Position numbers and translations under genes: made by a program. Source: Bacteroidaceae bacterium (GTDB lineage Bacteria; Bacteroidota; Bacteroidia; Bacteroidales; Bacteroidaceae). Taken from it: a DNA stretch of 64,000 nucleotides. The notes beneath the pieces are model-generated. The model saw nothing but the letters and a program-made list of their open reading frames with translations, searched no databases and had not been told where the DNA came from. The stretch is taken from the NCBI GenBank assembly GCA_017647225.1, contig JAGCLA010000015.1, positions 1-64,000 of the forward strand, read 5' to 3'. Below, piece by piece: positions 21,435-23,069 of this stretch (within the stretch, counting starts at the first letter, position 1; every line of letters starts with the position of its first letter).

Positions 21435-21468
21435 AATGGCGCAATCTTCCGATTGCGCCATTTTTTTT
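21435..21468 (+). terminator. Terminator of the galactose operon
   Basis: 12-bp perfect stem (21435-21446, 21451-21462) with a 4-base loop, then a run of eight T. Textbook intrinsic terminator. Confidence 0.95.
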
Positions 21469-21548
21469 GTTATCAACCTGTGAAAACAGCAACCTTGCCG
21501 CTCTTTGCTGATGTAATTTTGTTCCGGAATCATTAAAAAATATTGACT

Positions 21549-22454
21549 ATGGAAAACAATTACGAAGAGTTCTTCTGTTCAGAGGACCCGCAGGAGATTG
21601 AAAAAGAGAAAAACAAACGCAGCATTCTGCATTCGTTATTACCCAATCTGATGGGAGGTAAGGAGGACAAGACAAACTATGTGCTGATAAATTATGGAAC
21701 AGGCAACAGTGTTATGAATTGGAGGATAATGCCCGATTCGAGTAAAAACAACAGAAAAAATGATGTTACTGTTGAAGCAAATAAAAAAAGCTATAACTTT
21801 GACCCATGGAAGCGCGAAACAGAGATTGACAGCCTGATGCGCCACAATCCGAACAAAAAGGAAAGGTACGACAAAGATGAGTTTGAATATATAAACAAGA
21901 GCAAGTTCAATTCGGTTATTGGCAACAGTTTTGACTTTGAGGGCGGTTACTCAAACAACAAATATGACCGTGGCGGAGAGACAAATTATGGTATCACCAA
22001 AATATTCATGGAACAATACAAGAAGGCTCTTCCCGGAGGTAAGGTTAAACCGATAAAGGAAATAACCAAAGAAGATGCCTACAACATGTATAATGCCATG
22101 TGGAACCAGCATAATTTGGGCTATTTAAAAGATAAAAGCATTGCAGTTCTGTTGAACGACTACATGATCAACTCCAATGAATGGGAAGTAGCGAAGAGAG
22201 TGCAGGAAATTTTGAACAAAAAAGGGCATGAAATAAAGGTTGACAGAATCATTGGTCCAAAAACAATTGAGGCGATAAACAAAACCGATAGAAATTGGCT
22301 GATTGAAGAGATATTAATGGACAGATATAAAAATTACAGAAAACAGGTAAAAAACGAACATTTGCAGATTCACAATTATAAAGGATGGATAAACAGGCTG
22401 AATAAAATTGCTGAACTTGTTGGTTCCGGAACACGTTTTCCTGTAGAATATTAA
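21549..22454 (+). CDS. GH108-type muramidase with unassigned N-terminal extension; candidate toxic effector
   Basis: 301-residue predicted peptidoglycan hydrolase. Residues about 120-210 match the glycosyl hydrolase 108 (lysozyme-like) core: FDFEGGYSN with probable catalytic Glu131, then DRGGETNYGIT (140-150) and LLNDYMINS. Residues about 212-290 match the peptidoglycan-binding partner domain (GPKTIEAIN, GWINRLNKIAEL). The first 115 residues are hydrophilic, of no family I know, and there is no signal peptide, so export would need a phage lysis route or a contact-dependent system. By eye the gene is AT-richer than the galactose operon beside it. A membrane-anchored gene follows 14 bases later. 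Alternative: relic phage endolysin, but no other phage gene is nearby. Confidence 0.8.
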   Translation: MENNYEEFFCSEDPQEIEKEKNKRSILHSLLPNLMGGKEDKTNYVLINYGTGNSVMNWRIMPDSSKNNRKNDVTVEANKKSYNFDPWKRETEIDSLMRHNPNKKERYDKDEFEYINKSKFNSVIGNSFDFEGGYSNNKYDRGGETNYGITKIFMEQYKKALPGGKVKPIKEITKEDAYNMYNAMWNQHNLGYLKDKSIAVLLNDYMINSNEWEVAKRVQEILNKKGHEIKVDRIIGPKTIEAINKTDRNWLIEEILMDRYKNYRKQVKNEHLQIHNYKGWINRLNKIAELVGSGTRFPVEY

Positions 22455-22468
22455 ACAGCACCAAGTTT

Positions 22469-22999
22469 ATGAAAAAGGGACTTCTTACATTTTTCGGATT
22501 ATTTATTGTGGTTATTGCAATAATAGCATTCTACAAGCCCAATGAGCCAACGAATGACGAAAGCAACAAGCAATCACCATTCGTCGGTGCATGGGATTGG
22601 ATTGAAAATTCAGCCGAAACACATACATTCAACATCAGGATTGGAGAGAGGAACGACTCATTGCTATTCAGTATAAGCGGTGTTTTTTACGGAGGTCTTA
22701 AAATACATTCATCACCGAGCGACCTTGATTGGAATGATATAGCTATTGTAAAAGTTCCAATTCCTAAAAACAAAATAGTCAAAAGCAAGATAGCCGAAAC
22801 ATTATCAAATTTCTATTTTGACCCCGAGAGAATGGGTGTTTACAATGATGTATCATTCGAATTGCTCAACGACACTACTATGCTCTTTATACTCCCCGAC
22901 AACAAAGGATATTGGCCCGACACCGCAATAATGCTTCGTAGGGACAGAATAAACAGAAAATTCTCGAACGAAGAGGAAGAATTGCTGTACAGGGAATAA
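22469..22999 (+). CDS. Membrane-anchored periplasmic protein of unknown family; candidate immunity protein
   Basis: 176 residues. One N-terminal transmembrane segment (about residues 4-21) with only two Lys before it, then a polar linker and an extracytoplasmic domain of mixed beta character (GAWDWIENSAETHTFNI and later SFELLNDTTMLFILPD). This topology places the domain on the same side as peptidoglycan, where it could bind and block the muramidase encoded just upstream. I recognise no family. The two genes share orientation, a 14-base gap and a closing hairpin. Immunity function is inference from topology and linkage only. Confidence 0.65.
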   Translation: MKKGLLTFFGLFIVVIAIIAFYKPNEPTNDESNKQSPFVGAWDWIENSAETHTFNIRIGERNDSLLFSISGVFYGGLKIHSSPSDLDWNDIAIVKVPIPKNKIVKSKIAETLSNFYFDPERMGVYNDVSFELLNDTTMLFILPDNKGYWPDTAIMLRRDRINRKFSNEEEELLYRE

Positions 23000-23030: not shown

Positions 23031-23069
23031 ACTAAGCCCGGTCAAAAATCACTTTGGACCGGGCTTAGT
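23031..23069 (+). terminator. Hairpin after the muramidase pair
   Basis: 13-bp perfect arms (23031-23043, 23057-23069) with a 13-base loop. The following GTTCATATATA is only weakly T-rich, so termination may be partial. Confidence 0.65.

What the first reader, a model, noticed from the sequence alone, without database searches (positions are those of the whole stretch)
21549..22999. Candidate effector-immunity pair: GH108 muramidase with membrane-anchored partner
Seen: a muramidase with intact catalytic Glu131, no signal peptide and a 115-residue unknown N-terminal region, followed 14 bases later by a 176-residue protein with one N-terminal membrane segment and a periplasmic domain. Known: antibacterial peptidoglycan hydrolases delivered by type VI or similar systems are encoded beside periplasmic immunity proteins, and the extra N-terminal domain can serve as a delivery adaptor. 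Inference: this orphan pair is such a module. It is flanked by terminators on both sides and lies between housekeeping operons, as a small inserted cargo would.
Basis: partly seen in the sequence, partly recalled or inferred. Interest (0 to 1): 0.75.

Follow-up and report, generated by a model that had tools for sequence, protein, structure and literature searches.

The report
Phage-particle-linked toxin and immunity pair
A gut bacterium carries a gene for a cell-wall-cutting enzyme, probably a toxin, with its probable protective partner, under the same kind of promoter as the genes of a tamed virus-like particle, which suggests (not yet shown) that the particle, rather than a known secretion machine, carries the toxin to rival cells.

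Summary
In detail: a GH108 muramidase gene without signal peptide (21549-22454) and, 14 bases on, an exported-looking partner (22469-22999). The effector-immunity reading is supported; the type VI reading is not. The first ~50 residues are a module, found strongly only in this genus, shared by proteins with four different C-terminal classes whose exported neighbours differ class by class. One pair of species shows a tip swap: 81% identity over residues 1-189, then no similarity. The window pair is a low-GC insert between galK and a sulfatase gene that adjoin directly in four relatives. Four T6SS or contractile-injection markers were absent from the 37 or 44 genus genomes searched, with positive controls elsewhere. 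Instead, most effectors share a promoter, GCAAC(C/T)-N19/20-TAnnTTTG, 27 bp before the window effector. The same element precedes a phage-like gene set (terminase, P22-like portal, capsid-like, holin-like and tail-like proteins) present in this genome, split over separate loci, without stops and under purifying selection; in related viral contigs it is one cluster. Best explanation: a polymorphic antibacterial toxin-immunity pair in one regulon with a domesticated, gene-transfer-agent-like particle, perhaps its vehicle. Toxicity, particle formation and loading are inferred. Lysis-enzyme and bacteriocin readings remain open.

The parts
21437..21468 (+). hairpin and T-run after galK (left edge of the inserted unit)
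   Evidence: read from sequence; a similar hairpin follows galK in the empty sites
21489..21521 (+). regulon promoter GCAACC-N19-TAATTTTG, 27 bp before the effector ATG
   Evidence: only match of the pattern in the 64 kb window (ten shuffles gave 0 to 2, so its place and not its number is telling); 19 of 21 effector genes have it at up to 2 mismatches
21549..22454 (+). effector gene (301 aa), GH108 muramidase without signal peptide
21549..21698 (+). N-terminal ~50-residue module shared by proteins with different C-termini
21699..21893 (+). variable linker (about residues 51-115)
   Evidence: alignment
21894..22175 (+). GH108 catalytic domain (about residues 116-209); Glu131 codon 21939-21941
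22200..22400 (+). PG_binding_3 domain (residues 218-284)
22469..22999 (+). partner: proposed periplasmic immunity protein (176 aa, N-terminal membrane segment)
23031..23069 (+). hairpin after the partner (right edge)
   Evidence: read from sequence

Best explanation
The pair is one member of a polymorphic toxin-immunity family that belongs to one regulon with a domesticated phage particle. Shown: a shared N-terminal module with exchangeable C-terminal domains and class-matched exported partners; insertion at a variable site; a promoter element shared with phage structural genes; those genes intact, split over separate loci and present in this same genome. Inferred: when the regulon fires, the toxin is made in the cytoplasm together with P22-like particles, the N-terminal module attaches it to (or loads it into) the particle, holin-driven lysis frees the particles, and the particle puts the muramidase into the periplasm of a neighbour, where it cuts peptidoglycan. 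The partner, held in the periplasm of kin, binds and blocks it. My own step estimates: toxin-immunity pair 0.85; one regulon with the phage-like genes 0.75; carried by the particle 0.4.
For: N-terminal module in 25 of 44 genus genomes at E<=0.01, 24 of them at E<=3.3e-10; in 393 genomes of the order the window's own match is the only strong one. 23 distinct full-length effectors fall in four C-terminal clusters: 12 GH108, 5, 3, and 3 DUF6973. Next gene exported in 19 of 23. In 13 neighbours compared, similarity occurs only within a toxin class and never between classes. Tip swap G023:C52 against G003:C38. Effector broken while the partner ORF stays (G017, G007, G006); three tandem partners and no effector in 10,978 bases of G036's contig (L136). 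Empty galK-sulfatase junction in 4 of 30 galK loci held; G010 has a different promoter-bearing pair beside galK. Promoter: 14 of 21 effectors by the strict rule against 2 of 363 other ORFs; 259 matches against 43 for the reversed pattern in 44 genomes. Phage-like set: terminase, P22-like portal 3.6e-34 in this genome, capsid-like protein, with the element or variants of it in this genome; capsid dN/dS 0.03-0.05 in 4 of 4 pairs.
Against: No direct evidence for toxicity, particle formation or loading. The N-terminal module shows no similarity to the proteins of the phage-like loci (no match at E<=1) or to phage records (best E 0.4). Of 40 regions read around promoter matches, 17 show neither an effector nor a phage-like gene, so the pattern alone is not specific. 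Two of 21 effectors lack the element and several have it with mismatches; the own locus A operons have weaker forms (GCAAAC, or TT at the start of the -7 box). dS is near saturation. The rows of the promoter test are related, not independent. Four of 23 effectors show no exported neighbour: L028 has none within 400 bases, L089 none in the 276 bases seen, L017 and L022 lie at contig ends. Pfam found no family for the terminase and none over its cut-off for the capsid-like and holin-like proteins.
Confidence: 0.55

Rival explanations
1. Lysis enzyme of the particle: the GH108 protein is the endolysin that opens the producer cell, and the partner is a periplasmic brake on it.
For: Locus A has a holin-like and, by my reading, an Rz-like gene, and I saw no endolysin in it; GH108 proteins include phage endolysins; the promoter is shared.
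Against: GH108 of this group is patchy: 20 of 61 genomes matched the full query, at least two of these by the N-terminus only. The same N-terminus carries three other C-terminal classes, with other partner families. Partners persist without effectors. A tip swap is not expected of a dedicated endolysin.
Confidence: 0.2
2. Colicin-like bacteriocin: the toxin is freed by lysis and enters rivals on its own through an outer-membrane receptor recognised by the N-terminal module.
For: No injection machine found; partners look exported, as known for pesticin and colicin M (recalled; only a search listing seen); no signal peptide.
Against: The conserved N-terminal module is only ~50 residues, short for both receptor binding and uptake (inference); the promoter shared with capsid genes would then mean only a shared lysis trigger.
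Confidence: 0.2
3. Orphan T6SS or eCIS effector, as first proposed.
For: Enzyme class and exported partner fit; mobile T6SS can be missed in metagenome-assembled genomes (general knowledge).
Against: Four markers absent from the 37 or 44 genus genomes searched, with positives in G055/G052.
Confidence: 0.03
4. Plain prophage remnant: a phage endolysin with a neighbour of no special role.
For: The catalytic domain is about 31% identical to Bacteroides phage endolysins.
Against: The 15 phage matches listed (of 153 records) start at residue 116 or later; exchangeable tips and class-matched partners.
Confidence: 0.02

Closest known systems
Polymorphic toxin systems (PMC3482391, start of abstract in a search listing)
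   Same: constant N-terminus, exchangeable C-terminal toxin, adjacent cognate immunity, tip exchange
   Different: the N-terminal module gave no credible Pfam or NCBIfam hit in the proteins scanned and was found strongly only in one genus of those searched
MuF polymorphic toxins of temperate phages (PMC5576092, passages)
   Same: toxins tied to a phage head; the paper hypothesises delivery with the injected DNA
   Different: no MuF hit; here the toxin genes lie apart from the phage genes and are linked by a promoter element, and the partners point to a periplasmic target
Gene transfer agents (PMC12946183, passages)
   Same: phage structural genes in several operons dispersed in the host genome, intact
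   Different: a Bacteroidales case, with toxin-immunity genes under the same promoter element; packaging of host DNA untested; the passages I saw name no Bacteroidota GTA
TtsA/Sen1395 muramidases of type 10 secretion (PMC6996933, passages)
   Same: catalytic domain followed by a peptidoglycan-binding domain (weak PDB match to Sen1395, 6v3z, E 0.15)
   Different: TtsA is 180 residues (passages), without an extra N-terminal module; no holin gene beside the window gene
T6SS peptidoglycan hydrolase effectors with periplasmic immunity (recalled)
   Same: enzyme class and partner location
   Different: no T6SS marker found in the genus

Membership tests
Polymorphic toxin system | shared N-terminal module with unrelated C-terminal domains | tested here: met
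   four C-terminal clusters in 23 effectors
Polymorphic toxin system | exchange of the C-terminal tip at one site | tested here: met
   L043 against L049: protein similarity stops at residue 189/190; DNA homology from the upstream flank ends about 40 bases before that point
Polymorphic toxin system | cognate immunity gene next to the toxin | tested here: met
   exported neighbour in 19 of 23, families follow the toxin class (13 compared); protection itself not tested
Polymorphic toxin system | toxic to bacteria lacking the immunity gene | not testable with these tools
   needs expression
T6SS effector | T6SS in the genome or lineage | tested here: not met
eCIS cargo | contractile sheath and spike genes | tested here: not met
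   tube family PF06841 uninformative because no control rang
Gene transfer agent (the phage-like set) | phage structural genes dispersed over several host loci | tested here: met
   loci A and B on different contigs in G000, G029, G033, G036; contiguous in viral contigs L327-L329
Gene transfer agent (the phage-like set) | no integrase or phage replication genes | tested here: inconclusive
   none noticed by eye beside the loci read; no family search for them was made, and 1.365 of 2.133 Mb of the own genome was read
Gene transfer agent (the phage-like set) | intact genes under purifying selection in a lineage | tested here: met
   no internal stops in the 17 gene copies compared; capsid dN/dS 0.03-0.05 in 4 of 4 pairs, terminase 0.07-0.08 in the 2 of 4 pairs not saturated, holin and portal pairs saturated
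Gene transfer agent (the phage-like set) | packages host DNA and transfers it | not testable with these tools
   needs particles
MuF toxins | MuF domain | tested here: not met
   no such hit for the effector
Holin-associated muramidase / type 10 secretion | NCBIfam NF040573 cut-off and adjacent holin | tested here: not met
   47.5 bits against a cut-off of 240; neighbours are galK, partner and sulfatase

The most novel reading that the evidence does not exclude
A Bacteroidales genus with relatives in the ruminant gut has tamed a P22-like phage into a dispersed, gene-transfer-agent-like particle and arms it with interchangeable cell-wall toxins that carry a particle-targeting N-terminal module; the particle injects them into the periplasm of rivals, and kin are protected by periplasmic immunity proteins.
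Probability: 0.38. Interest if true: 0.93.

Novelty: new variant of a known kind. Interest (0 to 1): 0.8.

Why it matters
If true, phage capsids, and not only contractile tails, have been recruited as toxin carriers between Gram-negative bacteria, in a gut genus where I found no T6SS marker. It would give a Bacteroidota gene-transfer-agent-like element, a reason for a lineage to keep it, and a short exchangeable address tag that can be tested directly. Even if the toxins only share a lysis trigger with the particle, the promoter gives a practical way to find effectors: two ORFs were picked out by it before I recognised them, one then matching DUF6973 at 1.4e-16 (L121), the other effector-like by eye and by its fused partner (L147).

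Tried and rejected
T6SS-iii, eCIS and phage sheath, tube and spike markers: absent, or for PF06841 uninformative because no control rang. Anti-phage defence: no PADLOC match at E<=0.01 for 6 proteins. Double-glycine leader at the MGG of the N-terminus: rejected because the GG is not conserved. Known relative in PDB for the module or the partner: nothing convincing by sequence. Synteny guess that the tail-fibre-like locus C follows transketolase in this window: wrong, other genes are there. Named relatives: the muramidase as query found none; the partner profile found 20 loci, all titled Bacteroidaceae or Bacteroidales metagenome-assembled genomes, those with a host in the title being ruminants. 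Three promoter matches with a GCAACC...GTTGC palindrome look like another regulon (L209, L215, L224) and are counted among the 17 regions with neither effector nor phage-like gene. The likeness of two C-terminal classes to zinc peptidases and papain-type hydrolases is my reading of motifs; no family matched over its cut-off.

Rows dropped before counts. One search printed 30 rows: 3 repeats of one ORF, 2 chance-like (L064, L068), one fragment (L016) and the deleted G017 effector (L086) were dropped to give 23. In one search, 11 of 372 background ORFs met the strict rule; 7 of these were effector or GH108 ORFs that my filter had missed and 2 (L121, L147) turned out effector-like, so I dropped those 9 rows to get 2 of 363; the 14 of 21 is my count from the printed list under the same rule. 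The 40 regions were chosen by me from the truncated list, mostly GCAACC with a 20-base spacer; the places in the own genome were not listed there. My count of the 40: 17 phage-like (15 clear, L188 and L207 by weaker similarity), 4 effector, 2 with only an effector remnant or partner (L187, L197), 17 neither.

Full report
1. The observation. Window 21549-22454 encodes a 301-residue protein with GH108 and PG_binding_3 domains in its C-terminal part, and 22469-22999 a 176-residue protein with a hydrophobic N-terminus. Glu131 is invariant in the 16 aligned sequences. G+C is 0.373 and 0.384 for the two genes against 0.463 and 0.467 for galK and the sulfatase gene.

2. The N-terminal region is a module. 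Searching 61 genomes with the whole protein gave, beside GH108 homologues, matches of only residues ~3-66 to the starts of other ORFs. With the first 74 residues, 17 of 61 genomes matched at E<=0.1. A profile of 18 such N-termini matches 25 of 44 genomes of the genus at E<=0.01, 24 of them at E<=3.3e-10. Among 393 genomes drawn from the order only the window's own match is strong; ten other genomes match between 2.2e-4 and 0.0091 and were not followed. No PDB chain matches credibly (best E 0.27).

3. Four toxin tips, matched partners. The 23 distinct full-length effectors cluster by their last 170 residues into 12 GH108, 5 with a conserved SE-x-I/F-H-x-x-QD-like motif, 3 with a Cys/His/Asp pattern like papain-type hydrolases, and 3 DUF6973 (the second and third label are my reading). 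The next gene encodes an exported protein by a simple hydropathy and lipobox rule in 19 of 23; of the other four, L028 has no neighbour on the strand within 400 bases, L089 none in the 276 bases seen, and L017 and L022 lie at contig ends. Thirteen neighbours, eleven of these effectors and two of DUF6973 effectors with another N-terminus, were compared with each other: similarity occurs only within a toxin class (GH108 4 of 4 linked; second class 3 of 3; third 2 of 2), never between classes; the two DUF6973 neighbours L021 and L023 did not match each other. At one site in two species (L043, L049) residues 1-189 are 81% identical and the rest shows no similarity; the DNA homology, which runs through the upstream flank, ends about 40 bases before that point. 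Partner ORFs outlive effectors: in G017 the muramidase has lost its middle, in G007 and G006 it is broken. In G036 three tandem partners stand without any effector-like ORF in 10,978 bases of the contig (L136). L147 carries a partner that, by eye, fuses two immunity-type domains. These are marks of polymorphic toxins under reciprocal attack.

4. A variable insert. galK was found in 35 of 44 genus genomes at the cut-off used, and 30 loci were held. In four (G033, G023, G035, G020) galK is followed directly by the sulfatase gene, 89-92% identical to the window's, so the pair is absent; in the 25 others beside the own one no sulfatase was found in the 1.5 kb flank or less. In G010 a different effector-partner pair with the same promoter lies beside the 3' end of galK. 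In G022 a 98% identical partner fragment lies before the same sulfatase gene. A second shared site: the G036 triple partner follows a protease-like gene that in the own genome is followed by the decayed GH108 gene (by eye).

5. No known injection machine. PF17541 (TssC) 0 of 37 genus genomes, PF17642 (TssD) 0 of 44, PF04717 (spike) 0 of 44, PF04984 (sheath) 0 of 37; G055 rang for the first three and G052 for spike and sheath. PF06841 rang nowhere and says nothing. The genus genomes are 55-98% complete, so absence in any one is weak, absence in all is not.

6. A shared promoter. Upstream of 19 of 21 effector ORFs, GCAAC(C/T) and TAnnTTTG stand 19 or 20 bases apart, with at most two mismatches, 12-38 bases before the ATG; L100 and L017 lack it. 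TAnnTTTG is the usual Bacteroidetes -7 element (recalled); the other half is not the usual -33 TTTG. In the window the pattern occurs once, before the effector; ten shuffles of the window gave 0 to 2, so the place and not the number is informative. By a strict rule 14 of 21 effectors and 2 of 363 other ORFs have it (the rows are related, so the Fisher value of 1e-18 is not a true probability). Genus-wide there are 259 matches against 43 for the reversed pattern.

7. The rest of the regulon is phage-like. Of 40 regions read around such matches, 17 hold phage-like genes, 4 effectors, 2 an effector remnant or a partner only, and 17 neither. The phage-like ones belong to: locus A, two divergent operons with a terminase large subunit (phrog_2, 4.2e-21; no Pfam family; 38% identity over its whole length to a gene of Bacteroides phage BF1-TP2 that the record calls tail spike but whose note names Terminase_6C), a capsid-like protein (phrog_26635 of unknown function, 2.9e-21; SU10_MCP 0.004, below cut-off; DUF5309 protein in BF1-TP2), a holin-like protein (PF05105 0.0029, below cut-off), a small Rz-like lipoprotein (my reading), and a 950-970-residue protein (phrog_32516 of unknown function, 1.4e-52); locus B, with a P22-like portal (PF16510, 3.6e-34, own genome) and a 1500-1640-residue protein with an LPD23 domain in one copy (1.1e-10); and loci C, D, E with fibre- or tail-like proteins (D has GDSL lipase domains).

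8. The set is in this genome. In the 1.365 of 2.133 Mb read, locus A lies on contig C45 (capsid-like protein 85%, terminase 76% identical to G031) and locus B on C2, between ligA-like and ATP-synthase-like genes by eye. Their upstream regions hold the element or near variants (GCAAAC-N20-TATCTTTG; GCAACC with TAATTTAG; divergent copies with TTCCTTTG or TTCTTTTG; read). Of six pattern matches in that DNA, four precede effector or phage-like genes (window; C22 GH108; C3 DUF6973 effector; C2 locus B) and two lie inside other genes.

9. Domesticated, not a plain prophage. In BF1-TP2 the terminase gene is followed by the portal gene, and in three IMG/VR contigs (two of them nearly the same) with 62-64% identical capsid-like proteins, portal, terminase and capsid genes are contiguous. 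In the genus, A was seen in 8 genomes and B in 5, on different contigs in the 4 genomes where both were seen. G036 and G015 share the flanks of A. The copies compared have no internal stops, and capsid dN/dS is 0.03-0.05 in 4 of 4 comparisons, with dS of 2 or more. This is what a gene-transfer-agent-like element looks like; whether it packages host DNA is untested.

10. How it would work. The toxin has no export signal, its class attacks peptidoglycan, and the partners are exported, so it should reach the periplasm of the target from outside. P22-type podophages push capsid-stored ejection proteins through the envelope (recalled), so a particle of this type could place a protein there. This step is inference. 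The rivals, a lysis enzyme with a brake, and a bacteriocin freed by the same lysis, share much of the evidence and are given 0.2 each.

11. Literature. Searches for GTA with Bacteroidetes and terminase (14 of 14 listed) and GTA with Bacteroidales/Prevotella (12 of 15 listed) showed me no paper on a GTA of Bacteroidota in titles and starts of abstracts; [quoted passage not shown] MuF toxins (PMC5576092, passages) are the nearest precedent for phage-head polymorphic toxins. A Bacteroidetes class of polymorphic toxins with an N-terminal TANFOR domain exists (PMC7073777, listing only); I did not compare it. DUF6973 is named in no paper held.

Noticed in passing
L031 7327-7944 (own genome C22): Second GH108 gene with the same promoter but without the N-terminal module, with a two-residue deletion in the DRGGET motif and no partner; looks decayed. 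The same site in G036 (L136) holds three partners.
   Followed up: partly
L248 17068-17986 (own genome C3): Second effector type in the own genome: DUF6973 protein (1.4e-20) with a different N-terminus (PSIFEIATAYE) and a lipoprotein-like neighbour, under the same promoter.
   Followed up: partly
L238 5740-11022: 1760-residue tail-like protein with DUF4886 and GDSL lipase domains near a promoter match; possibly a glycan-trimming tail fibre.
   Followed up: no
L209, L215, L224: Promoter-pattern matches with a GCAACC...GTTGC palindrome before cation-efflux-like or TolC-like genes; probably a different regulon that overlaps the pattern.
   Followed up: no
L200 and L201: Promoter matches before a small protein with a GIY-YIG-like motif and before an ATPase-like protein; could be further regulon members.
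   Followed up: no
L009, L010, L011, L012: A divergent GH108 branch whose partner is a 311-322 residue lipoprotein made of two fused partner domains.
   Followed up: partly
L064: Weak match of the N-terminal profile (E 2.2e-4) to an ORF in another family of the order; may be chance.
   Followed up: no
L228 7907-14866: Tandem array of three similar large lipoprotein genes (MKIKNLFSMLAM...) beside locus B.
   Followed up: no
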